The position numbers and the translations under genes were made by a program. Of a stretch of 64,000 nucleotides of DNA, positions 32,614-56,951 are shown piece by piece; positions within the stretch are counted from its first letter, which is position 1, and each line of letters starts with the position of its first letter. The stretch comes from Zasmidium citrigriseum (Eukaryota; Ascomycota; Dothideomycetes; Mycosphaerellales; Mycosphaerellaceae): NCBI GenBank assembly GCA_002786025.1, contig NHNW01000033.1, forward strand, positions 372,001-436,000, written 5' to 3'. Below the pieces are notes generated by a model. That model was not told where the DNA came from. It was given only the letters and a program-made list of their open reading frames with translations, and made no database searches.

Positions 32614-32845
32614 TCGCTGTGAGGATCCATGGCAGACCGGCGTATCGAGGAACAAAATGTCGCATATTGTGAGAGTGGACAGGATATCGTTGTCCGCGAG
32701 AAGATTTTGCGGGCTGAGCGACGCCCAAGGAGGGAGACAGAGGGCGATGAAGAATCTAGGTGATCAATTCAGCACTGTGAACATATTTTCAGCACACAGC
32801 GACCCACCGCGAGGAGCTGAAGCTACCGACCTTTTTCGTCTTGCA

Positions 32846-32850
32846 TATTC
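32846..32850. repeat. Left target-site duplication TATTC
   Basis: TATTC directly abuts the left LTR start TGTTG and is repeated exactly at 39423-39427 after the right LTR. Five bases is the usual copia integrase stagger. Confidence 0.9.
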
Positions 32851-32977
32851 TGTTGTGCTGAGATCACGTGAGAGTGCCAAGAAGGACACATCAGAGTTTT
32901 TACAGTCTATGTAGATAGTCTCTTCTTTAATTAATTATTTAATTATTATATGAAGGCTATAATCCTACTATATAATA
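32851..32977 (+). repeat. Left LTR (127 bp)
   Basis: Starts TGTTGTGCTGAGATC and ends TATATAATA (right copy GCACAACA). Aligned to the right LTR it differs at about 17 positions, all transitions. Its outer half keeps the ancestral bases and its inner half is mutated. Confidence 0.95.
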
Positions 32978-33049
32978 GGTTATAAGCCTAGCGCTTATAG
33001 ATTAGTTTATAAATATATTAATTTAATCCCTCTACCTTAATCTAAGAAT

Positions 33050-36000: not shown

Positions 36001-37640
36001 TAAAATTAAAAGGAAAAGTATAAGGTTTAGGAGGTAAGTTACTATCTATAACTATAAGGACATAGACTTAAATAGCCTAGCGTATATAGGAGGAGCTTTA
36101 AAGAGGTACTCTAATCCTAAAACTATCTAAGAGGCTTTTACTCCTAGTAATCCTTAATATAAGTAGTAGAGGAAAGCTATAGTTAAAGAGATTAAGTCTT
36201 TATAAGACATAGATACATTAGATTAGGTTTATAAGACTTAATTGCCTAAAGGAAGAATCCTAATAAAGTATAAGTAGGTATTTAAGACTAAGTAGCTTCC
36301 TAATAATATTATTAAGAAGTTTAAGGCTAGATAGACTAAAAAAGGGTTTACTTAAAGGCCTAGAATTAATTTTAGGGAGATATATACTCTAACCCTAAGA
36401 GCTATAATAAATAGAGTATTATTAGCTCTAGTAGTATAAGAAGTATTATATAGGGCCTAAGTTAATATAGAGACTACATTCCTAATACTAAATCTAGATA
36501 GAGATCTCTATATTTATCTACTAATAGAACTTAAGGAGTTTAATAGGCTAGGAATAGTTATACGCCTTAAGAAAGGTCTATATAGGCTTAAATAAGTAGC
36601 TATACTATAGTATTAAGAGGTTATTTAACTTTTAATTAATCTTAGCTTTAAAAGACTATAGTTAGACCCTTATATGTTTATCCTTATAGATATAGTTGTT
36701 ATAGTATATATTAATAACTTCTAGATTCTTAGTAAGTTAAGGGAGAAGATTAACTAGCTCCTAAGTAAGATATAGAAGCGCTAGAAGGTTAAGGAAGTAG
36801 AAACTAACCTCTTTCTAGGTATATAACTACTCTAAGATAGCAAAAATAAGTTAAAGCTCTTATAGAGCTATTATGCTCTCTAAAAGCTTAAGGGCTATAA
36901 TCTTAATATAGTACGCTCTATTAAGTACCCTATAGACAAGATATATAAGCCCTTTAAGGGAGAATATACTCTATAGGACTATACCTTATTTAATAAGATT
37001 ATTAGAGAACTATAGTACCTCTTAAACTATATAAGGCCTAATATCTCCTATATAGTTAATTACTTAGCTAGATTCCTTTAGAATTACTCTCCTAAGTATA
37101 TTACTACTACTAAACATATCTAGAGATATATTTCTAGTACTAAGGATAAGGGAATTGTCTATAAGAAGACTAAAGGCCTTAATATTAAAGTATTCTTAGA
37201 TATAGACTTCGCTAGAGATCCCTATACTTTAAGATCTACTACTAGATTACTTATTAAGATATATAGTACTCTAGTAATCTAGAGATTAAAGATATAAAAG
37301 CAAGTTATACTTTCTAGTACTAAAGCTAAGTATCTTACTCTTATAGAGATATATAGGGAGCTCTATTAGCTTTATAATTTACTTACTAAACTTAGGCTAT
37401 TTATTAAGTCTATACCTAAGCAATTTAAGATCTTTATAGATAATAAGTTAGCTATCTCTCTTATTAAGAATTATATAGACTTAAGAAGATCTAGATATAT
37501 ATCTTTAAGGAACTATTACTATAGAGAGTAGTATAACTTAGGATTTATTACTATTAAATACATTAAGACTATAAAGTAAGAGGCTAATACTCTTATAAAA
37601 GCTAGAAAGATAAACTAGCTTCTATAATTATATCCTATAT
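33050..37640 (+). pseudogene. Relic gag-pol of the copia element
   Basis: Translation with stops ignored shows copia domains. The gag knuckle at 33821-33862 reads YKEYRKKGYPIEKC, spacing C-x2-C-x4-H-x4-C with the first two Cys and the His turned into Tyr, as G-to-A and C-to-T RIP would do. The integrase region has KIYIDLVGL, YILIDIKTR and TPK(stop)NRIIELSNKS blocks. The reverse transcriptase YVDD centre reads YINN at 36707-36718, both catalytic Asp codons turned to Asn. RNase H begins DIDFARDPYTLRS near 37199, preceded by the KHIWRYISSTKDKG block. The 5' limit of gag is uncertain. Confidence 0.85.
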
Positions 37641-39286
37641 ACTTATATATATTATACTTATTTAAATCTCTTTTATAACTAGAAACTAGAGACTAGAGAC
37701 TATTTTTAGTAGTAATATATAAGCCTTTTTATTCTATAGTATTAAAATTAAATCTAAAAGCTAAAATAACTTTTTAGTATACTAATACTAGGTATCTAGA
37801 AAGTATAAAACATTAAAATATAAGAGAAGCTCCTTCCTAAGCTTAACTTTTCCTTCTAAGAGAAATTAAGAAGCTAGAAAATTATTTATACACTATAGAA
37901 TTAAGCCTAAGCACTACTAATTTAGTTATTTCTTAGTAGCTAATACCTATCTAGGCGGTATCTCTAGCTTCCCTTCTTAAAAGTATCCTTAAACTTATCT
38001 ACTATACGACGAATAGTAGTAGCTATACTCTTAATAGCCTCCTATTATAAGGAAACCTATAAGTAGTTAAAGTTAATTATAGCTTAACTACGATAACTTC
38101 TAGAGCCTAGGATAAGAAAGTTACGAGCCTAATCTACTCTCTAGCGGTTACCTAAGGCTAGTAACTAGTTTCTAGAAGCCTTATTCTTAGAGATTACGCT
38201 TAATAGAGATAGTAGAGCGCTATTTATACTATAGTTTAAGTCGCTTCTATTTCTACTAGCTTAAGATAAAGAACCTCCTTAACCTCCTAAGCGAGTACCT
38301 AGTACGTAGGTACTAAAGGAGTAAGTCTTATAGTAATTACTAAAGGTATACTTAATATATACTCCGTAGAAAGCGCCTAGGAAAGTAATATAGGCACTAA
38401 ATCTAGGGTTTCTACGCTCTTAATACTCCCTATAGCGGTTGTCTTAATTACTAGGCGTATTATAATAGCTATTAATTATAGTATTACCTTAAGAAGTAGC
38501 TAGGATAGTTAGAATATAGTATACGCTACTTCTAAAGTTAATCTTACTACTAGTAACTATTAAAGGAGCACGTACTATATTATCTAAGCTTAATAAGCCT
38601 ATCTACTAGCGATTTAGGCTATTCTTTAGATATCTCTTACTCTTAAACTCCTTAGGTATCTCCTTATATACCTAAAGTACCTCCTTAGTAAAGTTCTAGC
38701 TTAATTTTAAGGTCTTAATAAAGTAATTCTTTATAAGACGCTTTATAAGCGCCTTATGAATAGCGTTAAGTAACTTCTTACGCTTAGATATACCGCCTTA
38801 TCTAGAACCTTACTCTTAATTACGACGAGGAGGCTTACTACTACCGCTACTACTATTATCTCTAGTATTAGTTAAGGAACTAGCGGGAGTGTTAATAGTT
38901 ATCTATTAAGGTACGATAGCTATAGCTATTCTATAGAGGTTAGTACTAGCTTAATTAATAGCTTAGTATATTATATATACCTTATTAATGCTTTTAAAGC
39001 TTAGGAAGTATATATAGATATTATTAAATAAGTTTAAAGTAGTATAGAGTATTAAAAAGAGGAAATTAGTATATAGAGGTTAGTATAGAGGAGAAGGTTT
39101 AAATAGTAAGAAAGAGGGGTCTTTATACCCTACTAAGTAGTAGCGAAGGTTTGCTAGTATTATATAGACTAATTATATGTATTTGTAACTACCTAGTTAT
39201 TATTATAGTTACTTAAGCTTTCTTAAGAAGTATATAAAGTACTTAAGGTAGTAAGGTATCTATATTATTTAATATGCTTATATGCT
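37640..39286. other. Extra 1.6 kb between pol and 3' LTR of the copia element
   Basis: After the RNase H relic, about 1.65 kb remain before the polypurine tract, long for a copia 3' untranslated region. It keeps more CpG than the pol part. Minus-strand translation around 38600-38800 gives protein-like text with few stops (LIKRLIKNYFIKTLKLS, EIPKEFKSKRYLKNSLNR). It may be an additional antisense gene carried by the element or an older nested insertion. Confidence 0.45.
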
Positions 39287-39295
39287 AAGGGGGAG
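39287..39295 (+). other. Polypurine tract of the copia element
   Basis: AAGGGGGAG immediately precedes the right LTR start TGTTA. Its position fixes element orientation as plus strand. Confidence 0.8.
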
Positions 39296-39422
39296 TGTTA
39301 TGCTAAGATTACGTAAGAGTGCCAAGAAGGACACATTAGAGTTTTCACAGTCCATGTAGATAGTCTCTTCTTCAATCAATTATTTAATCATTATATAAAG
39401 GCCATAATCCTGCTGCACAACA
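39296..39422 (+). repeat. Right LTR (127 bp)
   Basis: Starts TGTTATGCTAAGATT and ends CTGCACAACA, followed by the TATTC duplication at 39423-39427. Its outer (right) half keeps ancestral C and G, and its inner half carries the RIP changes, the mirror image of the left LTR. Confidence 0.95.
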
Positions 39423-39427
39423 TATTC

Positions 39428-40001
39428 TACCGACGGCACTGCACCCATCGCTCTCACACCATTCTGCACCTTGCCTGTACGTCCCTTTCTTACAGGCCCA
39501 GCAATTGCCTGCCCCAAGCTCGCACGTCGTACGGTCCGCTAGACATAGTTGGCGCTGCTTTGGACGTAGCTTAGCTCGAACAGTGTCGGATGGAGGTCGA
39601 GTTGCTTACGGCGGGAAGTAGTGCCGTGGAGACTATTGATGTTAGCTACTGAGAGGATTGTTTGTGGAATGTTGTTGCTTGTCCGTCGGGGCGACGTGCC
39701 TCGGAGCGTCCAAAAGATAAGGGCGGTGATGTTGCCGACGTGATGATGTGAAGTGCTCGCCACTCCCTCGCGAGCAGTGGTCGAACGCCGTCTTTCCTGC
39801 TTCCATTAGCTCGAATATTGAGAGCCGTTTGTCACCGAAGTCAGTCTCTCGCCAGCTCATCTTCCCCGTGCGACTTAGACAGCTATGCATCTTTGCCTGA
39901 TACTCAATATTCTGCGATCATCAGCCATGTAAAGTCTCTTTCATCACCTACATGAGCTGTATAACGTAGCATTCCGTGGTCTCTTTTACAGGTATTCTCT
40001 T
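39428..40001. other. Intergenic stretch, ordinary composition
   Basis: 574 bp between the retrotransposon and the CCT3 stop. Base composition returns to normal at the LTR edge. Only short minus-strand frames occur; no gene supported. Confidence 0.45.
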
Positions 40002-43412: not shown

Positions 43413-44760
43413 CTACGAATACGCCCTCACTTCGGCTTCCAGATCCCCTAAATCCTCCTCCTCCCGACTCGCTTTCGACTCTCGCCCTTGCACAGTCGCA
43501 AACCCCTTATCCTCATGATGACTCGCCGTAGCCTCTGAATCCGATCGTCTGCTTCGCAATGAGACAGATGACGAGAGCAATCGCACGAGTTTCGAGGAAG
43601 ATATGGCATCGAAGACTCGAGCGGAGGGCAGAAGACAAGCGACCATGAAACCAACACCCATTTCGACGTACGTCCAGAAAAGTGCTACCGTAGCAAGACC
43701 TTAAAATAACGTCAGTGGTGTAGGACAAGGAGGTATCATCGGGGTTGCGGTCAAAGTAGAAGATGCCTCAATCCCCATCTTTCTTAAGAAGGGCCAAGGG
43801 TGCCACAAGCCCTCTACTAGCTTAGAGTCGCGTGCTCTCGTAGAGAGATGATCTTCCATGTTTGAGGGTAGGGTGGACACTGACCTTCGAGATCTTGAAC
43901 AGGATAATCAACCCCGAGAATGGAATACACACTCGCCGTGTGTCCATCCGCGGTGACCTGAGCCCAGGTTACCATTCGAAGAAGGCCGGCGACGACAGCG
44001 CTACATCCACATCGTCAGTCCACACATAGACTCAAGAGTTGAAGACACTCACAAAGCACTCAACAAAAACACCGCGCTCGCCTGTATTCTCTTTCGAGTG
44101 GTGACGAGTCTCAACTTCTGCACCATCACAAGCGGTTCAATCAAAATCGCAAAATCAATAATCCAATTAAACACACTCGCCACGAGATTCAACGCAAACG
44201 TATCCACGCACGCATCACTCTTCCAGAAATCCGTCGTCCACAGCGCTTCGGGGTATTTGCCGCAGAGGAAGATCTCGGCAAACAAAAACGTGACGGTCCA
44301 GAGGATCGTGAAGATTATCAACGTCCAGTTTGCGATGTCGAAGGGGGTGCGTTCGGTTCGACCACGGAAGATGCGACGGAAGAAGAAGAGGATGGAGAGT
44401 TTGATGAGGGAGATTGTGACGATGTGGCCGATCCAGAAGGCGTATTCGAATTTGTTGAGTTTGATGAATTCTTCCGTCGTGAGTTGGGGGAGGGAGTGGG
44501 CGCCGATGATGGCCGTTTGGGCGCCGTATGTGATGGCTACGCCGGCTGTGACGACCAAAATCTTGTCATGATCAGAGACCATCTAACATCTATACATGGG
44601 AGGCGATGAGACTTACGAAAGCCGGTATGATCAAAATCCCATCAATCTCCAACTTCTCCGAATACTTCCTCTGGCAATGCATTCGCGTGGCAAAGAGGAT
44701 GCAGCCCAAGATAGGAAACATCACTCCAATGGCCGTGCAGGCTGCGATGTTGTAGCCCAT
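43413..44760 (-). CDS. Rhodopsin-domain (PTH11-like) integral membrane protein
   Basis: Four exons: 44760-44617, 44561-44053, 44000-43885, 43699-43413; introns 55, 52 and 184 bp (185 positions 43700-43884); 351 residues. Segments follow the fungal rhodopsin-domain family: GYNIAACTAIGVMFPILG, then GILIIPAF spliced to ILVVTAGVAITYG, FEYAFWIGHIVTISLIKLSI followed by LFFFRRIFRG, IANWTLIIFTILWTVTFLF, and the late ATVALFWTYVEMGVGFMVAC followed by LLPSARV, equivalent to the family's E..iGiiaaClPt block. The C-terminal tail is Ser/Glu-rich and cytosolic. Some members are PTH11-type GPCRs; many sit in metabolite clusters with unknown role. It may be the left edge of the RiPP-like cluster. Confidence 0.8.
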
Positions 44761-45446
44761 CTTGTTTCAGGTCAGTCCAGCTGCCTGAGGAAGGAAGCGG
44801 CTGAACACCAACGAAAGAGAAGAGCGAATCCAACTAGATGGACGGCACAGTCGCAGAGACATTGGGCGACGAGAAGAGCTGAAGACAAGACTCTCTCAGA
44901 GCTGACAATGGCTCGGGGAAACTCCCATCAGCGTGCCGGATGCCGTTTCATCCAGCAGTGCACGCGAGATGCAGCGAAACGTGGGATGTCCTCTCCTCTC
45001 CTCGGAGAACAAGCTCTCATCGTCGGGCACTTCTCTCACATCTCACCGGCGAAGCGACGTCGTAGCATATGCATGTAATCTATGCTTGCTATCCCCACCA
45101 GTCAGACCCCGACACCACATTTGTGGAGCAGAGCACACGTTGGGGAAGATGTGGTGTTGGTACGACCGACGATCAGCTGGGTTGACGTCGAGCTTCGGGT
45201 CCTTCTTGAATCCTTCCGAGCTGGGTGAGGAACGACGTCAGCTCTTTTGTTGCAAACCCCGCGTGAAAGATTAATTGCTGAGTGAGGTGGTAGGGTGCTG
45301 CGTGTGGGGGCCATGGTGACGAAATATTACTTTCATTGTGGATGCGTTCTGCGTGAACAGAACAATCAAAGCACGTGGTTGTCACATGGAGCACAGCAGA
45401 TTGGATTGAATGAACGTTGATCTGGATTTTGAATTGGGATTACAAC
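44761..45446. promoter_or_regulatory. Divergent region between rhodopsin-like and UstYa-like genes
   Basis: 686 bp separating two divergent starts. Short frames only. It likely holds both promoters; no palindromic regulator site stands out. Confidence 0.4.
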
Positions 45447-46333
45447 ATGGCAGCCCAAATGGAAGAAGAGAAGTCGCCCTTTCTGCCTACACATGAAGAG
45501 AATGGAGAACGATGGCAAGGACGATCACAGAAACGATCTCGTACCTTTCGGATCCATGGACTCGTAATTCTGGTTGAGTTGCTCTTGCTAGGATTGAACA
45601 TTGGTCTATTCTTCATGACCAGCCTTTCGCGAGGGACTTCGATCGAACAAACCGGTTTTGATGAAGCATTTTGTAAGTGATACTTCATTTGCTGGGACGA
45701 TTGACTTGATCGTTACTGACAAAGTTGGTTCAGCACCTGCCACTTCTGCAGTCCCCTACAAAGTCGAAACGATCGATGTCTACGAGCCAAGCCCTTTCAC
45801 CGGCGAGCCTCGCCATGAGGTTGACGTTGCGTGGAGCGATCTGTTACGATGTATATCTTCCTATCTTCTCATGCTCCTGCACTCTGCTAACAAATATCTT
45901 TGTAGCGACCCAAATACGAGTGAGCGAAGACGAGATGAGACACATGAACAAAACCTCCGTCTCCCTCCTCGACAGCAGCGGCTACCTAGGCTATCCCGAA
46001 GCCCTCCACCAACTTCACTGCGTCAAACGCATGTACCAGTACCGGCACCTCGACTACTATACCAACCTCAACACGCACACCTTCGGCCTCCCACACTGGG
46101 ACCACTGCATCGAAGTCTTGCGGCGAGGGATTATGTGTAATGCTGACTTGACGATTAATACGGTTGAGTGGAGGGATGGGGAGATTAAGGGTGTGAGTAC
46201 GCATCCGAGGGTTTGTAGGGATTGGAGCAAGTTTGAGGAATGGGCAGAGCAAAGGGCGCTGAGGGGGAGGGCGGAGGGGTTGGTTGTTGGGGAGGATGAA
46301 GCAAATACTTATGGTCCCACAGATCTGTTATGA
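45447..46333 (+). CDS. UstYa-family (DUF3328) oxidase-like protein 1
   Basis: Three exons (45447-45672, 45734-45850, 45906-46333), introns 61 and 55 bp; 256 residues. A cytosolic tail precedes one membrane anchor (GLVILVELLLLGLNIGLFFM). The lumenal domain has IRVSEDEMRHM, then the first HxxHC motif in YPEALHQLHCVKRM (about 149-153) and the second in FGLPHWDHCIEVLRRGIMC (about 178-182). The pair of HxxHC motifs defines UstYa/UstYb proteins, which carry out oxidative macrocyclisation and related steps in fungal RiPPs such as ustiloxin and also act in other pathways. Both motifs are intact. It is convergent with a second UstYa gene, stops 49 bp apart, and close to the repeat precursor at 47829. 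Confidence 0.92.
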
Positions 46334-46382
46334 AAATGGAAGCGAATTATATTTGTTTGTTGAGGACCGCACTAGATTTATA

Positions 46383-47241
46383 TTACAGAGTATCAGGCCG
46401 CACCAACATATCCGTATTCGCCGACCGTCCCTTCATCCACTCATGCAACTTCTCCCAATTCACACACTTCTGCAATCCAGGCTCGTTATGTCTCACATGT
46501 CCTTTGTGCAATCCTTCTTCCTCCGCCCACATCACGGTATACATTGCATAATCGACGTGGCACATCATGCTTTGGCGGATCCAGTCGAGACAGTGATCTT
46601 CGAGCAATCAATCAGCACACATCAATGCGGTTCAAAAGGTAAGGTGTTCAAGACTCACCAGCATGCTCCTGCACATCCTTCCACTCCTCACTCTCCTGAT
46701 CCAAATCCCCATAAAAGTAATCCCGATAAAGAAACATCTTGATCTTCTTCACACAATGCAAATTATGAGCGACCCCTAGTCCCGCAGCGTATCCCCCGTC
46801 TTTCAGGGGAATGGAATCGAAACCGTGCTGATGGAGTTCATCTTCTGAGACTCGTAATAGCGTTCCTGCCATGAGATCGTGCATCGCTTGTTCCCATTTC
46901 GGTGAAGGTGGTCCGGTGAATTGACTGTTGTTGACGACTATTTTGCGCTGTTCGTAGGAGATTATGGGATTTGCGGGTGCTGGGGGATTGTCAGTAGTTG
47001 ATCGTTTGAGCTCGTGACAGAGAGACTTACAATATGGCTCAGGGATACCTCCATGGTCCCCATCTGTCATCGAGTATATCGTCGCCGTCAAGAACACGCA
47101 CAAGAGCAAAAGGGCGACATTCGCAATGGCCAATATCACGGCCACTGAGGAGCCCTTTCGCCGTCGAACGGGTCCATGGACATGCTGCTCTTCCCGATCA
47201 TCCTCGTTGAGAAACGACCTCTTCTCCTCTTCCGTCGCCAT
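46383..47241 (-). CDS. UstYa-family (DUF3328) oxidase-like protein 2
   Basis: Three exons (47241-47031, 46979-46659, 46597-46383), introns 51 and 61 bp; 248 residues. Anchor: SVAVILAIANVALLLLCVFL. Lumenal motifs: LLRVSEDELHQHG, AHNLHCVKKIKMFLYRDYF (first HxxHC, about 142-146), and after the second splice EHADHCLDWIRQSMMC (second HxxHC, about 176-180), then a Trp/Glu-rich end. Compared with protein 1 the shared order RVSEDE, HxLHCVK, HxDHC and a terminal W..L..W is clear, but identity elsewhere is low, so they are distinct paralogues, as in ustYa/ustYb. The 51 bp intron is a multiple of three with no stop, so a retained form would stay in frame. Confidence 0.92.
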
Positions 47242-47828
47242 ACTTTCGCCGTATGTACGATGGACAATCACGGTCGCCGAGTCTAGTCACACATACGCCT
47301 TGGCAAGAAGATACAAGAGCTGTAGTGGACCTCACCACCACGTCAAAGAGCCTCTCAGCCGCTGACGTCCCCACCACAGCTGAAGGAAAACCAACAAGAC
47401 CCTCTTCCTCCACAGGAGCCGGCACCGTCGTAAGCGCAGATCAGCTCCATCCCGATCCCCCAAGCTTTCCAGCTCCTTCATCGGGAATAGCATACCCAGT
47501 ACTCGCATTGTGCATGAGAAGATCGACCTTTTCGGTCTCCGAGTGAGCCAGGGGTCAAAACCAGTCAGATTCGCACATGCAACACGATTGCTTTATTGGT
47601 GTCGTTGTGGGGTGTTCCCACACGCGGATGACACCCCAAAGAAGGCGATGCTTGCAGGCGTTGGCTCTGTCTTGCCGTGCGTGTGGGATGTGGTCTTTAG
47701 GCTGTTGGTGATGACTGAAGTACTTCCGTTTTCCCATTGACATTGACGCCACCATCTCTGCGTCTCATCTCCTTTCGATACCAAGATCTCGGCAGAACGA
47801 AGAAGCTACATCGATATACTCCGTCAAG
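47242..47828. promoter_or_regulatory. Divergent region between UstYa-2 and the peptide precursor
   Basis: 587 bp between divergent starts. The part around 47440-47545 read on the minus strand gives KVDLLMHNASTGYAIPDEGA, reminiscent of an SDR NNAG region, but it runs into a stop; it is perhaps a gene relic. The last 100 bp are the precursor leader. Confidence 0.35.
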
Positions 47829-48240
47829 ATGAAGACGTTCTTTCTGGGCTTGCTGTTTGCGGTTGCTGTTGTTGCTGCTCCTGTGGCATTAGGTGAGTGT
47901 CTTCAAGTATCACGGCCGTTCAATGGCACTTGCTAAGTCGTATGCAGAACAACGAGACGGTTCGACTGAATTCGACCCCGATGCTTTCCTCAAACGAGAC
48001 GGCTCCACGGAGTTCGATCCAGACGCCTTTCTCAAAACTCGTGACGGCTCGACTGAATTTGATCCGGATGCTTTCCTCAAAGCACGAGACGGTTCAACGG
48101 AGTTCGACCCTGATGCCTTTCTGAAGCGCGACAATGCCATTTTACCTCCTGTCGAAGCGAGATGGCTCAACCGAGTTCGATCCAGATGCATTCCTCTGAG
48201 CGAGTCGAGTAATAATAGACAAGGGCCTGTACGATATTAG
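47829..48240 (+). CDS. Secreted repeat precursor peptide (candidate RiPP/KEP precursor)
   Basis: Two exons (47829-47892, 47948-48240), 55 bp intron GTGAGT...TGCAG; 118 residues in the continuous frame. The signal peptide MKTFFLGLLFAVAVVAAPVA is encoded mainly by exon 1. Exon 2 opens with EQR and then four tandem copies of DGSTEFDPDAFL, separated by KR, KTR and KAR and followed by KR. This is the architecture of Kex2-processed fungal RiPP precursors (ustA, phomA type): signal, then identical cores between basic sites. After copy 4 the frame leaves the repeat and ends in a non-repetitive 36-residue tail, while a fifth copy lies one base out of frame (48161-48196). UstYa genes, monooxygenases and a methyltransferase surround it. 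Product and activity are unknown. Confidence 0.85.
47956..48196 (+). repeat. Five copies of the DGSTEFDPDAFL-encoding unit
   Basis: Copies at 47956-47991, 47998-48033, 48043-48078, 48088-48123 (same frame) and 48161-48196 (frame shifted by one base). Spacings are 42, 45, 45 and 73 nt. All five encode the same 12 residues, yet every codon varies at its third position in at least one copy. Copy 5 is preceded by AAGCGA (Lys-Arg) and followed immediately by TGA. Confidence 0.9.
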
Positions 48241-48974
48241 GAGGACGGGTGAGCTGTATACATATTGTGAGCTTGGAAGGAGTTGGATCTTGGGTTAGCT
48301 AGCATGATATCCAATCTGAATGAACATGATTGTTTCGGTTTCATCCTTTACCTCTTCTTTCTCGACCTGTTGTAAACATCCAAGCAGGGCCGGTAAATCT
48401 GCCAGATCTCACTAAAACCTCAGCCAGCAGTCTTCCACCGGAACTGCAACACCCGTCGGACAGTTCCACAACATCTCAAATGAAGCTTCGTTTCCGAGCT
48501 TACGAAGTTGGAAGGAGCTGAAAAGCCAAGTGGAGGAGCTGAAGGATTGATCGACGCGGACCGCGCACTCAACGGCCGCATCGTGCATCGCTGCCGTCAT
48601 CGTCTGCAGGGACGTTGCACAAAACCGCTCGGGATATGGGTGCTAGCGCGGATGTTCCACACGTGCGTGGGGGTGTCGTGTCGGAGAACGTGTGAGTCTG
48701 GTGTGGAGACTTTGATGATTGATCAGTGAGGGCTGATGGTGTGTTTGACGTTGTGGGTATTGATTTCAGAGAAGCCCGAGAGGTGTGTGCTTCTGCGTCG
48801 ATCGAAAGAAAAGTAGTGAGCTCGTAGCACCTGCTTCAGCTCCATTGCAGTTGCCAACTCATTGACATTCCGACTGCATGCGATCCGTTACTTCCCACAC
48901 AACCCGGATCGATGGTGAAGACCTGAGAACATCACCACAAAAGAAGCCGTCGACCTCTCTACACACTTGCAATC
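48241..48974. other. Intergenic stretch inside the cluster
   Basis: 734 bp: 3' flank of the precursor and promoter of the first monooxygenase. A few short frames, none supported. Confidence 0.4.
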
Positions 48975-50261
48975 ATGTCGCCAAAGATCAGAGTTGCCAT
49001 CACTGGCGGCGGCGTGGCAGGAGCAGTGGCAATCCATGCCCTCCTCAAGCATTCTCACCTTGATCCTCACATCTTCGAATCGGCGCCAGCATTCAAAGAA
49101 GCCGGCATAGCATTTGGTGTAACTCGACAAGCCTACACAGCACTATCATTGATCGGAGAGTCCGCTACTCAAAGTCTCGACCGTGCCGGCGGCGTGGCAA
49201 TGAAGGGAGTGCATGCCTATGTTGGCCAGGGCAAAGGGGCCGGGGAGCTGGTGTACGAGCAAGACAATGCAGCCTTGGGAAAGTCGACGACCACCATTGT
49301 CCAGCGGGCGAACTTTCTCAAAGAGATGCTGGCAGATATCCCTCCTGAGCGAATGCATACTTCAAAGAAACTGCAAAGCATCGACCGGCGGGGCGATGGC
49401 TCAATTCTTATCCATTTCGCGGATGGCTCGACGCACGAGTGCGATATTCTGATCGGTGCTGACGGCATTCATTCAACGGTCCGAAAGATCATCCTGGGCG
49501 AGAAAGATCCAGCGGCCAACCCTCGAAACAGCGGCTCCTGGGCCGTGTTCACCATGCATCCATATGAAAAGGGCCGGGCAAGTATCGGAAATGCTCCAGT
49601 AAATCTCGAAGATGCCCGGGAATTCGGCTGGGTCGGTGAAGGTGGTTTCATGATGCACAACCTTTTCAGTAACGGCACCCAAGTCCAATTTACCGTAACA
49701 GGCCTTGATAAAGACGCAGTTGGGTCTGACAAGTGGCAACGGATGGTGACCAAGGATGAGTTCCAAAAACTTTACGTGGGCAAGGGCTGGCTGCCGCACA
49801 TGGAGAAGGCCGTCAATGATCTGCTTTGCGACGAACCAGAGCGGGGAGCTGTATACCTCTGGGAACATCCAAATGCTCGTACATATGTCGACGGACCTGT
49901 TTGCGTTTTGGGTGATGCCGCCCATGCCACAACACCATTCCAAGCATCCGGAGGAGGCATGTCCATCGAAGACAGCATGATCATGGGTGCGCTACTAGGC
50001 AAAGCTAGCTCGCCGAAGGAAGCACAAGCAGCGCTGAAGGTGTATGACGAGATCCGCCGGCCTCGAACGCAGAAGATCGTGGAGTCGAGCCTGATCACCG
50101 GTCAGCTCATGATGGGATTATACGAAGGCGTGGGTACAGATCCGAAAAAGCTCAGTGAGGCCTTGAAAGATCGATGGGACTTCATCATGGATCTTGACCT
50201 GAAGCAGCATCGGGAGGAGGCACTACAATTGCTGGATCAGCAGCTGAAGAACGGCGCATAG
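48975..50261 (+). CDS. FAD-dependent monooxygenase 1 (salicylate-hydroxylase-like)
   Basis: Single exon, 428 residues, ATG at 48975. Group A flavoprotein monooxygenase landmarks: dinucleotide fold RVAITGGGVAGAVAIHALL (7-25), DG motif DILIGADGIHSTVRKIIL (about 158), and GD motif VCVLGDAAHATTPFQASGGG (about 310), followed by MSIEDSMIMGALLG. It uses NAD(P)H, FAD and O2 to hydroxylate or epoxidise an aromatic or enol substrate in the cytosol. There is no secretion signal or anchor. In ustiloxin clusters flavin monooxygenases act after cyclisation, but those are a different subclass, so a role on the peptide here is inference. Same strand as the methyltransferase and monooxygenase 2. Confidence 0.88.
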   Translation: MSPKIRVAITGGGVAGAVAIHALLKHSHLDPHIFESAPAFKEAGIAFGVTRQAYTALSLIGESATQSLDRAGGVAMKGVHAYVGQGKGAGELVYEQDNAALGKSTTTIVQRANFLKEMLADIPPERMHTSKKLQSIDRRGDGSILIHFADGSTHECDILIGADGIHSTVRKIILGEKDPAANPRNSGSWAVFTMHPYEKGRASIGNAPVNLEDAREFGWVGEGGFMMHNLFSNGTQVQFTVTGLDKDAVGSDKWQRMVTKDEFQKLYVGKGWLPHMEKAVNDLLCDEPERGAVYLWEHPNARTYVDGPVCVLGDAAHATTPFQASGGGMSIEDSMIMGALLGKASSPKEAQAALKVYDEIRRPRTQKIVESSLITGQLMMGLYEGVGTDPKKLSEALKDRWDFIMDLDLKQHREEALQLLDQQLKNGA

Positions 50262-50898
50262 AAAGGCTGCAATCATGAACGTGATGTCTTTGGCTGTCCT
50301 GACTTGCCGACTTCAATTCTTCTGAGCGTTGATGCAGTGGTCCAGACTTGCTGGTGTACGATAGCCGGAAAGCGAAGTGGCCAAAGAATCAATTCTGACG
50401 CATCGCTGCTTTCCATCGAACAGCCTGGCAAAAAGAACATGATCTCATGTTGCCACGATCCTGACTGAATGAACGATGACAGGGTCCTTATCTGTTGTGT
50501 AGCCGAGACCCCTTCACATGCTATCTTGGCGGCCTCTGTAAGTGAATGCTCCGGCTCCGGCCAATAGATACTCCGGGCGAATCCTTCGGCAGGTCGATGG
50601 TCGCACATCACCTCGATGAGAACACAAAGTGCTGACCTTGGGCATCAGATTAGATACGAGTACAAGCGAGCTCTATAGCGACACGCGTGCCGATCGCTTT
50701 TGGTCTAGAGATGTACCTCCGAACTGGAAACCGAGCCAAGCTTTACGAAAGCTTCAACTCCGATCGACAGATGATGCGATCGGTGGCTTTCAAGTGTGGG
50801 AAAAACAACATCGCGTGCCTCTGATCTTGGTTCTGTTGACTTCTCGTGTGTTGCAGAATCGACCGCTTCCACAACAACTCTTGGACAACAATACCAAA
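50262..50898. other. Intergenic stretch
   Basis: 637 bp. A plus-strand frame open from 50629 is continuous with the methyltransferase but has no ATG before 50899 except a non-standard start. Likely promoter and leader. Confidence 0.4.
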
Positions 50899-52080
50899 AT
50901 GGCCGCATCGATATCAAACGTTACTTCAGCGGTGGAGGCATTGCTCGCCAACCCACCAGCAAAGCAAAACATCCAAGATGGCGAGACAGCCCGTCTATTC
51001 GATGCCATGGACAGACTCCGTGTGGCACTGGAGAAGCCAGAGCAGACCGTGAACAGAATCGTGTTCTCTTGCAGAAGTCTGCCCATTGTGAAGATCGCCC
51101 AAGGAATGGGAGTCTTCGACGCCTTCGCCGCTGCTGGAGAAGGCACTCCTCTGACGCTGGATCAACTCGACGCGCAGACGAAGGGAGACCGGAAAATGCT
51201 CATCCGCATCATGCGTCTTTTGATCACGGAGAAGGTCGTCAGCAAATCGAACGAGCAATACACTCTGGCTCCGTTTGCGTTCCAGTTCCGTAATGATACC
51301 GTTTCTGGCGAGGTTGTGAAGCATTTCTACAACACTGCCCTCACCGCAGTGCAATCGGACAACTACCTCCGGGCGAGAAATTACATCACTCCAGACGATG
51401 CATTCGATGCGCCGCATCAGTTCGCCAACAACACGAAGAAGCATTACTTCGAATGGCTGGCTGATGACGAGGAAAGACAGCGGCCTTTCAACGCCACAAT
51501 GTCTCTCCCCCGTCACGACGACCACAACCAATGGTTCAAGATCTACCCCGTGCAAGAGCGACTCAACGGACCTGGCAGCGTCTTCGTCGACATCGGCGGC
51601 GGTTCCGGCCACGACGTAGCTCGTCTTCGACAAGAATTCCCAGACCTCAAATGCGACATGGTGTTGCAAGACTTGCCAGCCGTTGTTGATGGCGTTGAGT
51701 TGCAGAACGTCAAAGTCCAGCCATACAACATGTTCGAAGCTCAACCGCTCAAGAACGCCCGGGCGTACTACATGCGTACTGTAATCCACGACTGGCCGGA
51801 CAAGCAAGCTCTGGAAATCCTCGCACGGGTCCGTGAAGCCATGAGCAAAGACTCCATTCTCTTGATCAACGAGAACGTCCTGTCCGAGAGCGGCGCGGAC
51901 GACACTCCCGTCGTCGCACACACCGACTTTACCATGATGCTGAACTTCTCCTCTTTGGACCGTACGGAAATGGAATGGTTGAATTTGCTCGAACAAGCAA
52001 AATTCAAGGTCGTCAAGGTGTGGAAGCCGCGCCAGACGATCAAGTCTCGTGCCTTGTTTGAGGCGATCCGCGCAGACTAG
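50899..52080 (+). CDS. SAM-dependent O-methyltransferase (COMT-like)
   Basis: Single exon, 393 residues, ATG at 50899 (MAASISNVTSAVEALLANPP). An N-terminal helical dimerisation/winged-helix region (VKIAQGMGVFDAFAAAGEG, KMLIRIMRLLITEKVV) is followed by the SAM fold: FVDIGGGSGHDVARLRQEFP (about 227-246), acidic LQDLP, then YYMRTVIHDWPDKQALEILA with the conserved catalytic His in IHDW (about 296), and ILLINENVL. This is the plant-type O-methyltransferase family, frequent in fungal natural-product clusters. It methylates a hydroxyl, often one installed by a neighbouring monooxygenase. Substrate unknown. Confidence 0.92.
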   Translation: MAASISNVTSAVEALLANPPAKQNIQDGETARLFDAMDRLRVALEKPEQTVNRIVFSCRSLPIVKIAQGMGVFDAFAAAGEGTPLTLDQLDAQTKGDRKMLIRIMRLLITEKVVSKSNEQYTLAPFAFQFRNDTVSGEVVKHFYNTALTAVQSDNYLRARNYITPDDAFDAPHQFANNTKKHYFEWLADDEERQRPFNATMSLPRHDDHNQWFKIYPVQERLNGPGSVFVDIGGGSGHDVARLRQEFPDLKCDMVLQDLPAVVDGVELQNVKVQPYNMFEAQPLKNARAYYMRTVIHDWPDKQALEILARVREAMSKDSILLINENVLSESGADDTPVVAHTDFTMMLNFSSLDRTEMEWLNLLEQAKFKVVKVWKPRQTIKSRALFEAIRAD

Positions 52081-52583
52081 ATTGGGGATATGCGAGTACT
52101 GTAGTTCGATCGATGTTTATATTCTCCAATATATCGTGATGTGTAGCGAGCAAAATCAATCATCTTTCCCGAAACGGTTGCAGTCGAGAGTGTGGTGCCA
52201 GATTCCAGATTCCAGATCGTCGTCGCTCTCCGGCTTCGTCTCATTCTGGCTTGGCTCCTCGTTTTCCGAACGCGAAGCACATGGCACAACATGCGACATG
52301 CCAACTGTATCGTGCGCTACCCCGATCGATGACGCAGCTGGCTTCGAAGGTAAATGGTGTTTTTGTTTGTCCGAGGACGTTTCAGGGTGTTGCGTGTTGT
52401 GGATGCGCTGAGCGATGGCAAGGGTTCATGATCTTCCGGGTGGCTGTTGCTTATCTCGTGTGCTAAGTCATGGGGGCTTGGAGGGTACATGCCAGCCTTT
52501 ATCGTCATGGAGTCGCGAGGTGTAGATGTGACTTGAAGTTGGAGAGCTGTAGCAAAAATTCCATCAATCAGATTTTGATCAAC
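52081..52583. other. Intergenic stretch
   Basis: 503 bp between methyltransferase and monooxygenase 2, same strand. Short frames only; holds the next promoter. Confidence 0.4.
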
Positions 52584-54314
52584 ATGCCTCGAATACATTG
52601 CCCACACGATGTAGGTCTCGAAGTCATACTGTCTTGAAGCCAGTTCTAACCTTCACAGCCGGCTCCGTTTCCAACAGGTGCATGGGAATACGTTCGCAAA
52701 GCCGAAGAGTGGGAACGAGGGGAGAAGCCCAGCGATTACGAACCTCCCAGCGAAGCTCCTATCCGATTACACGTAGCAGTTGTCGGTGCTGGTGTTGGTG
52801 GATTGGCAACCGCGGTGGCATTGCGTCGAGATGGACATGAGGTAGACGTATACGAAGATGCTCCAGCCCTCAGTGAGGTATATTCCAGAAAGATCGTCCA
52901 ACGTCTGGCATTCGCTGACACTCGTTGAAATCCAGCTCGGGGCAGGTATCCAGGTCCCACCCAACTCGCTCACAATCATGAACAAATGGGGCATGGAAGA
53001 ATCCATAAAATGCAAATCAGTAGAGCCCAATTACATGTGGTGGAAACGATGGCAGGACGGCAAAGTCATCGGCTGCACGAGCTACAAGCCCGACTTCCCC
53101 AAGAACTTCGGCGTACCGTATCGAGTCATCCATCGAGCCCATCTGCACGAAGCGTTGCATCAAAAAGCTGTCGAACATGGCGTGAGGATTCATTTGGGGT
53201 CAAGAGTTGTCAAATATGATCCAGAACGACCTTCGATGAAGTTCAAGGATGGAAGTGAGGTCGTTCCTGATCTCTTGGTTGCTGCAGATGGTAAGCTAAC
53301 CTTTTCGAGGCATGTGAACGAACAATGTTGACCTCACCTCTTACAGGCCTCAAGTCTCAGGCAAGAGAAGCAGTAATAGGAAGGAAGATTGACCTCCGGA
53401 ATCATGGCTTTGCTGCTTACCGAGCTTGCGTGCCGGTCGAGGAGATGAGAAAAAATCCGCTCATCGCCATAAACATGGATTTCGACAGCTTATGTCTTTG
53501 GTAAAGTCGATCTTGGCCAAGTGTTGTGATATATCGCTGACCCCGAACCAGGGTGGGAGACCAAACGCACGTAATGAGTTATGCCATCAAAGGCGGACAG
53601 GATTGGAACATGGTGATCACCATCCCGGAGCAGAAAGATCCATGCGAGTGGGAAGATTGGTCGCGAACTTCTCTTTCCAAAATGCAGTCCTTTTACGAAG
53701 GCTGGGACCCAACGTGAGTCTTCGTTGCGTCGAGGGTTGGCGTCTAGCTGACCGAAAACAGATTAACCGAGATCCTGAAAATGGTGAAGAAGACGAGCAA
53801 ATGGCCAGTCCAGGACATTCCGCAACTGCACAACTGGTCCTCGGCGAGTAAGAAGATGATTATTCTTGGCGACGCAGCGCATGCAATGCTGCCGTCGATG
53901 GCAGCAGGCGCATCCATCGCAATCGAAGACGCAGCCGGACTCGCTCAAGCACTCCGGCTAATCTCATCCCCATGCCAACTGCCAGACGCAATCGCAACCT
54001 GGGAGTCCGTACGAATCCCTCGGGCCACAGCTATGCAAGAAGCCAGCCGGAGGCATATGTACACCATCCACCTGGAGGACGGTCCTCAGCAAGAAGCCCG
54101 AGATCGGCTGATGGAGCCGGAGGTTCGAGGAGAGCACTACGTTGCGTCGCCGAACCAGTGGAGCGATCCCACAACGCAGAGGTGGGCGTATCTGCACGAT
54201 CCGGCGGAGGAGGTGAGGGAGGCCTGGGAGAGGTTTGCGCAGGTGTTGAGATCGCATGGGCGGAATTGGACAGCAGATGGAGCGAGCATTCCGGTGGTGT
54301 CGTCGAGGCTTTGA
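52584..54314 (+). CDS. FAD-dependent monooxygenase 2 (salicylate-hydroxylase-like)
   Basis: Six exons (52584-52610, 52659-52877, 52936-53290, 53347-53500, 53552-53713, 53762-54314), introns 48, 58, 56, 51 and 48 bp; 489 residues. Landmarks: HVAVVGAGVGGLATAVAL (about 48-65), splice-joined ALSELGAGIQVPPNS, DLLVAADG joined to LKSQAREAVIG (DG motif, about 200), and IILGDAAHAMLPSMAAGASI (GD motif, about 340) then AIEDAAGLAQAL. This is the better-known salicylate-hydroxylase-like class with an intact GAGI and GD segment. It has an N-terminal extension of about 45 residues. The nine-residue first exon is the least certain part. Confidence 0.87.
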
Positions 54315-54370: not shown

Positions 54371-56308
54371 TCACCGAATTTCCATGTCCACGTACTCACT
54401 CTCAAGCAGAGACATGGTAGCTCCGTCCGGAGGGTCGATGTCTCCAGAGCCAGGCGTTTCTGTCTCAAGATCGTCCACGTAGCATTCTCCCGCATTCTTG
54501 AACCAGCACACAGACCCATCGCTCGAGTATTCAGTGCTGAGCACAAAGGTCGCATCGTCCGGAGCAAGACAGTATATACAATCGCCTTGTCGTTTCTTTG
54601 GAGACCCACATCCCATTTTTCCCCCGCGAGTCAAGAATACCGAGGTGTGGTCGATGCGCCATTGGAAAACAGTGTCGTAACTACGTGACCATTTTTCCGT
54701 GTACAGTTCTGCTGCAAGCTCTTTGAAATATTTAATGTCGACATCTGTGGTCCCTGGAGGGAGTAGAGCATAGCCAATATTGTAGGTATGATTTTCTACG
54801 TCCTGCGGGTCCAGGTCCAACGTGAATATGAAGTTGAGAAGCCATTGGTAGAATCGGGCCAAGAGACGAGGAGTGCGAGCGGGATGGTCAGTCTCCAGTC
54901 GTTCCGGACGGATCAATTCAAATAGGCCAAGTAAACGAGATTGCCCGTTGGCCAAATGAGTACCGGCGTAGACATAGTCTAGAAGAAATCCGCCGAAGAC
55001 TTCTTGTCGTTCAAAGACGTCAGCGTACTTTGCCGGATGGAGAGCCGGCAGAGTCAGTACTTGCTCAATGATATCCACTTTTCTGCCTCTTACTCGTAGA
55101 ACTTCGCGATCAACGCAGGTGGCCGTCACCAAAGGCTTCATCGAGCTGTCTCTGTGGCTGTACTGTCCCCAAGGATGAAAAGGTACGATACCGCACCACT
55201 CTGGCGCCCAACTGGGCAGCCCCGCGATCTGGGTCTTCGATGGGTTGGATAGGATGGTAGCGGACAGTCTGAGGATATCATATGCTTCTCCATTCCTGAT
55301 CGCATATCTTGCGAAATCAGTGTATACTTGCGCAACACTCTTGCTGTAGTCCGGTCTGATGAGGTCGTAACCGGGCTTCTTTTGGTCAGCAGCATTTTCA
55401 AGGGCATAGATCTTGTCTCTCGGATCTGTTGCATGTTGAATTGCTAAAGACGCGAGAAGTCTGGCAGTGAGAGGTCGTTCGCCTTGCAACCTGGATCGAA
55501 CCTCTTCCAAGAGCTTCAGCATGGACTCCAGTCTCCACAAGTCTGAGGTATCGGTGGGAAAACTTTGGCCGGTCCCCAGATATTCTCTGAAATCGGCCAA
55601 ATACACGAACATTCCTCTGATCCCAGGACTGAGGGCCAGGAGATACTCCAGGTCAATCGTCTGGTGCCCGAAATGGAACACCGCATGTTTGGCGAGTGCC
55701 AGCTCCGGAACCACCCAAAGACGGCTCCAATATGGACGAGTAACGAAGTAGAATATGGGCGGCATGCGAGATGCATTCCACTCGGTCGTAAGCTCCGGGA
55801 GGATGTCCTTCATTAGTTGTAGAGACCGGTGCGGACTACTATCCCCTGTCATGCTGGCGTTTATCCACCGTCTAATGGTCTCGAAGTCGACATGAGCATC
55901 GCTTGTTGCCTCACCAAGCCAGGCATGGACAACTTGACTTTGGCCGTAAACTTGTCCCATCTGCTGCACCTGCTGACCTCTTTCCTCTCGATCGGCCTGA
56001 TTGATGCAAATTGCGTCTGCCCATATGACCAGATGATCACTGGAAGATCGCAAATCCCGCAAAGCTGCCTCTAGAGGCGAGCCGATCGTGGCTGCTTCAT
56101 TATTGATCAGTACCTTGCGCCGTGGAGTCGAGTCCTCCCAGCAGTATGACAGAGCATGATATCGCAGTGCTTCATCGTCAAGACTGGCATGGAACAGGTC
56201 GCATTTGACAGTGTCGCTCTCATCGGTGGGAGACCGAGGATGCAGTCGAAGTAATCGGATCTCTCGAATGCTGGGATCAAGCGGCCGATATGTCAGTCCA
56301 GCAGCCAT
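54371..56308 (-). CDS. HET-domain protein (heterokaryon incompatibility)
   Basis: Single exon, 645 residues from the first ATG (56308). The HET domain spans about residues 50-215: YHALSYCWEDSTPRRKVLIN, VIWADAICINQADREERGQQ, VQQMGQVYGQSQVVHAWLGE and, further on, RPYWSRLWVVPELALAK, where most members read W.RVWV.QE; here Pro-Glu replaces Gln-Glu. The remainder (about 220-645) is the usual unconserved C-terminal part and has no NACHT or WD repeats. HET proteins trigger cell death in vegetative incompatibility in some species, but most are uncharacterised. It is convergent with monooxygenase 2 (56 bp between stops) and marks the right edge of the metabolite cluster. Confidence 0.9.
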   Translation of the reverse strand: MAAGLTYRPLDPSIREIRLLRLHPRSPTDESDTVKCDLFHASLDDEALRYHALSYCWEDSTPRRKVLINNEAATIGSPLEAALRDLRSSSDHLVIWADAICINQADREERGQQVQQMGQVYGQSQVVHAWLGEATSDAHVDFETIRRWINASMTGDSSPHRSLQLMKDILPELTTEWNASRMPPIFYFVTRPYWSRLWVVPELALAKHAVFHFGHQTIDLEYLLALSPGIRGMFVYLADFREYLGTGQSFPTDTSDLWRLESMLKLLEEVRSRLQGERPLTARLLASLAIQHATDPRDKIYALENAADQKKPGYDLIRPDYSKSVAQVYTDFARYAIRNGEAYDILRLSATILSNPSKTQIAGLPSWAPEWCGIVPFHPWGQYSHRDSSMKPLVTATCVDREVLRVRGRKVDIIEQVLTLPALHPAKYADVFERQEVFGGFLLDYVYAGTHLANGQSRLLGLFELIRPERLETDHPARTPRLLARFYQWLLNFIFTLDLDPQDVENHTYNIGYALLPPGTTDVDIKYFKELAAELYTEKWSRSYDTVFQWRIDHTSVFLTRGGKMGCGSPKKRQGDCIYCLAPDDATFVLSTEYSSDGSVCWFKNAGECYVDDLETETPGSGDIDPPDGATMSLLESEYVDMEIR

Positions 56309-56951
56309 TTTCAAACCAGCTGTTGGCTGGTTTGACTAGACCAAACGAGTCCAGACCATGTCTCGCGCCTGAAGATGGAAATCTAAGATCGATAACAATC
56401 GGCCAGAAACTCGCCCTGGATATTCGGCCAGTTCTCAGCCCCAGATTTGTGACACCGTAAGAGAAGCAAGCTGCTGTCGTTGCTTGGCCTCTGTGGCCAA
56501 GCATGACAAGGAAAGTCAGTCATCATTAGCAAGAAACCAATCTGGACGGGAGAGCAACGCAGTCTTCGCTAGAAGATATATGACATGAGGTCTGAGTTGT
56601 AGAATGTCAAGAGAAAGTGGTGCAACAACAGTTGCAGCCAAGGCCTGAGCCGAGTCGGCGTACCGGCCTGCAATGCTCCATCATTTCGACCATGATAGTT
56701 GTTCGGCTGCGAAAGTTCTGAGTGTACCGAGTTTGAAAATGATGCGGAGGATAAGGGCTCGATGAGAGGAGGCAAGAATTGAAGACGTGAAGTCCAAGGA
56801 AAGGGTGATCAAAGTTCAGACCCACCTTCTCCCAACCAATCAGCATCGCCCACCCCAAGACGACACCTCTTCAACTTCGCCATCAACAAACCCCAAACAC
56901 CACCACAACCCCATCAAACACCACCATTCCCCAAACCGAGGACTATCCAAA
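56309..56951. promoter_or_regulatory. Divergent region HET gene / GRASP gene
   Basis: 643 bp between divergent starts. The right 150 bp are C- and A-rich (CACCACAACCCC type), a typical leader of a constitutive fungal gene. Nothing else recognised. Confidence 0.4.

What the first reader, a model, noticed from the sequence alone, without database searches (positions are those of the whole stretch)
43413..54314. Candidate new dikaritin-type RiPP gene cluster with an unfamiliar core peptide
Within 11 kb there is a secreted precursor with identical 12-residue repeats between basic sites, two UstYa-family proteins with intact double HxxHC motifs, two FAD monooxygenases, one O-methyltransferase and a rhodopsin-like membrane protein. 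No PKS, NRPS or terpene core enzyme is present that could otherwise explain the tailoring genes. UstYa proteins plus a Kex2-type repeat precursor is the established logic of ustiloxin, phomopsin and asperipin biosynthesis. The repeat DGSTEFDPDAFL has no Tyr; its two Phe flank DPDA and would be the candidate aromatic cross-link sites. I know of no described product with this core. Cluster borders are inferred from housekeeping neighbours (CCT3, TLC gene, GRASP).
Basis: partly seen in the sequence, partly recalled or inferred. Interest (0 to 1): 0.93.

Follow-up and report, generated by a model that had tools for sequence, protein, structure and literature searches.

The report
Fungal repeat-peptide gene beside UstYa genes
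A mould genome carries a gene for a small, apparently secreted protein built from copies of one short peptide, beside genes for UstYa-type enzymes that oxidise such peptides, and related peptides with the same constant front part and a changeable tail occur in other fungi.

Summary
In detail: a precursor with a signal-peptide-like start and repeats of DGSTEFDPDAFL lies beside two UstYa (PF11807) genes with intact double HxxHC motifs, then two FAD monooxygenases and an O-methyltransferase. The repeats are real coding units: five copies differ at all 12 third codon positions and at none of the other 24. The fifth lies in another frame.

New: the precursor belongs to a family. I keep 22 relatives (12 at E <= 0.003, 10 at E 0.02-1.5, judged by the shared block) that share R-DGSTEFDxD and vary in the next 3-4 residues. 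In Zasmidium cellare a precursor (PRZ48_002748, E 0.36) and the closest UstYa2 relative (PRZ48_002749, 63% identity) carry consecutive locus tags, which suggests a conserved pair.

A Phe-Phe cross-link is not supported as family chemistry: Z. cellare has one Phe per unit; Phe6 is near-invariant. The wider 11-kb cluster is unproven: FAD2 resembles 4-hydroxybenzoate hydroxylases, rhodopsin-like genes are abundant in this genome, and the promoters show no shared k-mers above control. No tyrosinase match lies on the contig. It is a new Tyr-free member of the known Kex2-repeat/UstYa (dikaritin-like) kind; product unknown.

The parts
47829..48240 (+). Precursor gene: exon 1 47829-47892, intron 47893-47947, exon 2 47948-48240; signal-peptide-like start and four in-frame 12-residue copies
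   Evidence: no Pfam match
47956..47991 (+). copy 1 DGSTEFDPDAFL, preceded by QR
47998..48033 (+). copy 2, preceded by KR
48043..48078 (+). copy 3, preceded by KTR
48088..48123 (+). copy 4, preceded by KAR
48161..48196 (+). copy 5, in another reading frame, preceded by KR and followed directly by a stop codon
46383..47241 (-). UstYa2 (248 aa, 3 exons), HNLHC and HADHC; divergent neighbour of the precursor
45447..46333 (+). UstYa1 (256 aa, 3 exons), HQLHC and HWDHC
48975..50261 (+). FAD1, salicylate-hydroxylase/AfoD-like monooxygenase; membership unproven
50899..52080 (+). O-methyltransferase (PF00891), LepI/MpaG'-like; membership unproven
52584..54314 (+). FAD2 (6 exons), 4-hydroxybenzoate/vanillate hydroxylase-like; probably not part of the pathway
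43413..44760 (-). Fungal rhodopsin-like membrane protein; membership unproven

Best explanation
The core of the locus is three genes, UstYa1 (+), UstYa2 (-) and the precursor (+); UstYa2 and the precursor diverge from a 587-bp region. Shown: tandem units whose copies differ only at silent positions; relatives in other fungi; in one of them a close UstYa2 relative with the neighbouring locus tag. Inferred: the precursor enters the secretory pathway, is cut after R (Kex2 at KR; less certain at QR, KTR, KAR), a carboxypeptidase trims the basic residues, and a 12-residue peptide D1-L12 results. Inferred: UstYa1/UstYa2, membrane-anchored enzymes of a family with a reported copper-dependent macrocyclase (a reference title is all I saw), oxidise the peptide, with near-invariant Phe6 or a nearby beta-carbon as the likeliest site (macrocycle, hydroxylation or desaturation). 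The constant block DGSTEFDxD would be what the enzymes recognise and the tail the variable part of the product. FAD1 and the O-methyltransferase may tailor it; FAD2 and the rhodopsin-like gene probably do not belong.
For: Synonymous-only divergence of five copies. 22 relatives with 37 units, in Dothideomycetes (Zasmidium) and Sordariomycetes (Monosporascus, Immersiella, Diaporthe). All 42 units, the window's five included, have R before them and 36 of 42 are dibasic; in 8 precursors (two of them Z. cellare assemblies, one the window's copy 5) the last copy stops exactly at the end of the tail, which suggests the mature C-terminus. Z. cellare precursor PRZ48_002748 and UstYa2 relative PRZ48_002749 lie on contigs of the same length, 4,497,513; the window and Z. 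cellare UstYa2 form a 100/99 clade (27 of the 42 hits used). Other UstYa matches in the window's own genome are far less alike (at most 38% over short stretches; best by E-value is UstYa1, 36%). Both UstYa proteins carry two HxxHC. Base rate: 22% of Kex2-repeat genes have DUF3328 neighbours (PMC7329392 abstract).
Against: No expression or chemistry. Adjacency outside the window rests on locus-tag numbers in one assembly of one species; the Z. cellare precursors scored E 0.36, not significant alone, and are accepted for the 11 identical residues KRDGSTEFDPD plus the neighbour. No UstYa2 relative from the second Z. cellare assembly (P0061) was among the 42 hits. UstYa2 relatives also occur in Cercospora, Septoria, Pseudocercospora, Aspergillus and Paecilomyces, where no DGSTEFD precursor was found. 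Three of the five window copies follow QR, KTR or KAR, not dibasic sites. The last copy is out of frame. Block conservation is partly due to how relatives were found (shared exact words).
Confidence: 0.66

Rival explanations
1. The precursor yields an unmodified secreted peptide (signal or pheromone-like), and the UstYa genes act on something else or are neighbours by chance.
For: 74% of Kex2-repeat proteins in the survey have no DUF3328 neighbour and are not annotated as pheromones (figure legend passage). The peptide has no Tyr, and all five copies are identical in protein, as a signalling peptide would be.
Against: A close UstYa2 relative is the next locus tag in Z. cellare. No Pfam match for the precursor, MF_alpha included. 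About 30 UstYa loci (my merging by eye of 43 exon-level matches) are spread over 44.4 Mb, yet two lie within 2.4 kb of the precursor.
Confidence: 0.16
2. One reading: all seven genes form one pathway and the product is cross-linked between Phe6 and Phe11.
For: Gene order, and no PKS or NRPS domain among the ten proteins Pfam-scanned at the locus. A Phe side chain is cross-linked in victorin according to PMC9233826 (passage).
Against: Z. cellare and Podospora relatives have a single Phe per unit. FAD2 is 4-hydroxybenzoate-hydroxylase-like. No shared promoter k-mers. Rhodopsin-like genes are abundant.
Confidence: 0.08
3. The precursor is decaying: the change of frame before copy 5 marks a gene on its way out.
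For: Copy 5 is out of frame.
Against: Four copies remain in frame and differ only at silent positions; copy 5 too has only third-position differences, so any loss is recent or an assembly error. Relatives with intact linkers exist (P0049).
Confidence: 0.07

Closest known systems
Dikaritins (ustiloxin, phomopsin, asperipin-2a, victorin; UstYa/DUF3328-modified Kex2-repeat peptides)
   Same: Signal-peptide-like start, repeated cores behind basic residues, adjacent UstYa genes with two HxxHC motifs
   Different: No Tyr in the core, no tyrosinase match on the contig, no peptidase or transporter among the ten proteins Pfam-scanned at the locus; a constant acidic block with a variable hydrophobic tail. 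Victorin is also closed through Phe (to Leu, PMC9233826 passage).
Epichloecyclins (GigA)
   Same: Repeat precursor; peptide variants arise from imperfect repeats (PMC9233826 passage)
   Different: There variation is between repeats of one precursor and closure is Tyr-Ile; here the window's repeats are identical and variation is mainly between species.
Unmodified Kex2-processed repeat proteins and alpha-pheromones
   Same: Secretion and Kex2 logic
   Different: Pheromone-type precursors almost never have UstYa genes nearby (PMC7329392 abstract and passages); no MF_alpha match here.

Membership tests
Kex2-processed repeat protein (KEP) | N-terminal signal peptide | tested here: inconclusive
   Hydrophobic N-terminus read by eye; no signal-peptide predictor available
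Kex2-processed repeat protein (KEP) | Tandem near-identical repeats | tested here: met
   Four in-frame copies plus one out of frame
Kex2-processed repeat protein (KEP) | Kex2 sites (KR/RR) between repeats | tested here: inconclusive
   KR before 2 of 5 copies in the window; 36 of 42 units dibasic over the family
Dikaritin, 2021 definition as told in PMC12048977 (section 23 read) | DUF3328/UstYa protein with two HxxHC motifs | tested here: met
   Both proteins
Dikaritin, Ding et al. definition as told in PMC12048977 | Tyrosinase gene | tested here: not met
   22 exon-level tyrosinase matches in the genome, none on contig C76
Dikaritin, Ding et al. definition | Methyltransferase gene | tested here: inconclusive
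   An O-methyltransferase is present but its membership is unproven
Dikaritin, Ding et al. definition | Transporter or peptidase gene | tested here: not met
   None among the ten proteins Pfam-scanned at the locus; MFS genes lie at 27.3-28.9 and 8.0-9.2 kb, over 14 kb away
Dikaritin | Side-chain cross-link in the product | not testable with these tools
   Needs LC-MS
Fungal alpha-pheromone | MF_alpha-type sequence | tested here: not met
   No Pfam match for the precursor

The most novel reading that the evidence does not exclude
An undescribed RiPP family common to two fungal classes: each core carries one near-constant nine-residue block DGSTEFDxD that serves as recognition sequence and cross-link donor (Phe6), and only the 3-4 residue tail varies. 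Pro at position 8 always goes with a three-residue tail and other residues with a four-residue tail (12 of 12 and 30 of 30 units), as if residue 8 and the tail close one ring of fixed geometry.
Probability: 0.3. Interest if true: 0.72.

Novelty: new member of a known kind. Interest (0 to 1): 0.52.

Why it matters
Few UstYa-modified peptides are characterised: a 2022 review counts five dikaritins (PMC10512285, passage), against 1758 repeat precursors with DUF3328 neighbours in one survey (PMC7329392, passage). A family whose front block barely varies while its tail changes, with the enzyme gene apparently next door in Zasmidium cellare, gives a small gene pair on which to ask what UstYa enzymes recognise and what they do without Tyr.

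Tried and rejected
Literature: DGSTEF, GSTEFD and RDGSTE searched inside words: 3 papers, unrelated by title, not opened. Supplements and figures are not searched, so the family could be an unnamed row in an earlier survey's table. Passages of PMC6339444, PMC8403587 and PMC7099791 gave nothing on this motif.

Promoter k-mers over five intergenic regions against 200 sets of random stretches from elsewhere in the window (32-40 kb left out): no excess at k = 7, 8 or 9.

Fold search of the Z. cellare UstYa2 relative (AlphaFold2, best of five models mean pLDDT 84.1, the others 66.0-79.9) against the PDB: 146 matches at E <= 10, none at E <= 0.001. phmmer of UstYa2 against PDB sequences: one hit at E 2.3, taken as chance. 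No coordinates were laid in the Python box, so the distance between the two HxxHC motifs was not measured.

Two of the 24 hits (P0065, P0066) were dropped as chance: neither has D at position 9, and P0066 lacks the basic site. Of the 22 kept, P0001 and P0002 were in the profile; ten others (P0055-P0064, the Z. cellare pair included) have E 0.023-1.5 and are kept for the block; some are fragments without a signal-like start.

UstYa2 tree: 27 of the 42 hits plus both window proteins; 12 of 26 inner branches open and UstYa1 on a very long branch, so no statement on horizontal transfer.

Full report
What is there. The window lies in a 44.4-Mb fungal genome (G000, contig C76:372001-436000). Between a TCP-1 chaperonin ORF and a TLC-domain gene on one side and a HET-domain and a GRASP gene on the other lie, in order: a rhodopsin-like gene (-), UstYa1 (+), UstYa2 (-), the precursor (+), FAD1 (+), an O-methyltransferase (+) and FAD2 (+). 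Gene models come from reading splice sites; Pfam confirms each enzyme. UstYa1 and UstYa2 converge with 49 bp between them; UstYa2 and the precursor diverge from 587 bp.

The precursor. It starts MKTFFLGLLFAVAVVAAPVAL, has one 55-bp intron, and encodes four in-frame copies of DGSTEFDPDAFL, preceded by QR, KR, KTR and KAR. A fifth copy, preceded by KR and ended by a stop codon, lies in another frame after a longer linker. I did not alter the frame. The linker holds NAILPPVE in the frame of copies 1-4; an unnamed relative (P0049) has SAILPPVE in an intact linker, so intact copies exist elsewhere.

The repeat is not an accident of DNA. The five copies differ at 12 of 12 third codon positions and at 0 of 24 others; 24 of 108 single changes to copy 1 would be silent. 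Divergent DNA with identical protein means selection on the peptide, copy 5 included. In the whole genome the pattern for DGSTEFD matches exactly 5 times, all here; with one mismatch allowed it matches 10 more places, all on other contigs, and the control (pattern read backwards) 5 places.

A family of precursors. A single-sequence search returned two hits at E <= 10 among 140 candidates: Nemania sp. FL0031 (E 4.6e-9; three copies of DGSTEFDGDLMIL) and Diaporthe citri (E 8.2; one DGSTEFDADALFF). A profile of the three found 24 proteins at E <= 10 among 5330 candidates. I keep 22: ten at E <= 1e-3 (two of them in the profile), two at 0.002-0.003, and ten at 0.02-1.5 that rest on the exact block. 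They carry 37 units, 42 with the window's five. All 42 are preceded by R and 36 by a dibasic site. D at position 9 is in all 42; Phe6 in 41 of 42 (Leu in one copy of P0048). The tails differ: AFL, DAL, FGF, FAL after Pro8; LMIL, LAFF, LGFF, LAVL, LAIL, LTVL, ALFF, LCIL, LCLL, LCLV after A, G, T or R. Pro8 goes with a three-residue tail in 12 of 12 units and other residues with four in 30 of 30; over 16 distinct cores this is 4 against 12 (Fisher p 0.00055, not corrected for relatedness). In eight precursors (window copy 5 and two Z. cellare assemblies included) the last copy ends exactly at the tail, which suggests the mature end. Relatives were found by shared exact words, so conservation of the block is partly built in; the variability of the tail is not.

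Partner gene. The UstYa2 search gave 42 hits at E <= 0.001 among 249 candidates; 35 of 42 carry both HxxHC, and the other seven are shorter than UstYa2 (146-220 aa). The best, 63% identical, is PRZ48_002749 of Zasmidium cellare, and a Z. cellare precursor is PRZ48_002748, on a contig of the same length. The two UstYa2 proteins form a 100/99 clade. In the window's own genome the other UstYa matches to UstYa2 are at most 38% identical, over short stretches; the best by E-value is UstYa1 at 36%. This is the strongest evidence that precursor and UstYa2 work together. Limits: one assembly of one species, inferred from locus tags; that precursor's own E-value is 0.36; the second Z. cellare assembly gave a precursor (P0061) but no UstYa2 hit; and UstYa2 relatives exist in genera (Cercospora, Septoria, Pseudocercospora, Aspergillus, Paecilomyces) where no such precursor was found. 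Of the eight named genera with precursors, five (Nemania, Diaporthe, Xylaria, Podospora, Zasmidium) also appear among the UstYa2 hits. Classes were looked up for Zasmidium (Dothideomycetes), Monosporascus, Immersiella and Diaporthe (Sordariomycetes) only.

The Phe-Phe cross-link cannot be general, since Z. cellare (DGSTEFDPDDAL) and Podospora/Immersiella (DGSTEFDADLAVL) have one Phe per unit. Of the tailoring genes, FAD2 is nearest to chains named 4-hydroxybenzoate decarboxylase and decarboxylative vanillate 1-hydroxylase (8gsm E 7.4e-94, 8x38 E 3.3e-83), which points to aromatic catabolism; FAD1 resembles salicylate hydroxylase and AfoD; the O-methyltransferase resembles LepI and MpaG'. PMC12048977 says O-methyltransferases had never been reported in dikaritin clusters (passage). 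The rhodopsin-like family gives 121 exon-level matches in this genome. Promoters share no k-mers above control. So the supported unit is precursor plus UstYa2, with UstYa1 likely, FAD1 and OMT possible, FAD2 and the rhodopsin-like gene unlikely.

How it probably works. Secretion, cleavage after R, trimming of basic residues, and oxidation by membrane-bound UstYa enzymes; all of this is inference from the family. Copper-dependent macrocyclisation by a DUF3328 enzyme is known to me only from a reference title (Chiang et al. 2025, in the reference list of PMC12186524; the paper is not held). UstYa proteins also desaturate residues in phomopsin (PMC10512285, passage), so an aromatic partner is not required. 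Phe6 is the one near-invariant aromatic. The Pro8/tail-length rule suggests that residue 8 and the tail belong to one folded or cyclised unit.

Place among known things. Kex2-repeat precursors with DUF3328 neighbours are a known kind: 1758 of 7878 in the survey PMC7329392 (abstract and passages), with Tyr in 65.6% of the repeated sequences. By the 2021 criterion told in PMC12048977 (section 23 read) this locus counts as dikaritin-type; by the older five-gene list it lacks a tyrosinase and a peptidase or transporter nearby. I therefore call it a dikaritin-like locus and a new member of that kind with an undescribed, Tyr-free core family. The motif was not found in the searched full texts, which do not include supplements or figures.

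Noticed in passing
window 11350-12452 (+): A second Kex2-like repeat gene, GN-rich, apparently in several exons, with units such as NGNGDGNLLNNGDKNTIGSGNSFG followed by RREAQ or KRQGNG. The nearest UstYa match on the contig is over 30 kb away.
   Followed up: partly
window 32000-40000: AT-rich island, 27-41% GC against 51-58% elsewhere, with no ORF of 200 aa; looks like degraded repeats.
   Followed up: no
proteins P0054-P0060, P0063, P0064: A second class of DGSTEFD precursors (Xylaria, Biscogniauxia and unnamed sources): one copy with Cys in the tail (TDLCIL etc.), then a segment like GDVLGIGFDNCDL with a second Cys near the C-terminus. All but P0054 score E above 0.02.
   Followed up: partly
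family of 42 units: Pro8 goes with a three-residue tail, other residues with four, without exception.
   Followed up: partly
window 54371-56335 (-) and 22221-24353 (-): A HET-domain gene next to FAD2 and a Het-C gene, both heterokaryon-incompatibility type.
   Followed up: no
model of P0003: A UstYa-family protein predicted at mean pLDDT 84 has no PDB fold match at E <= 0.001.
   Followed up: partly
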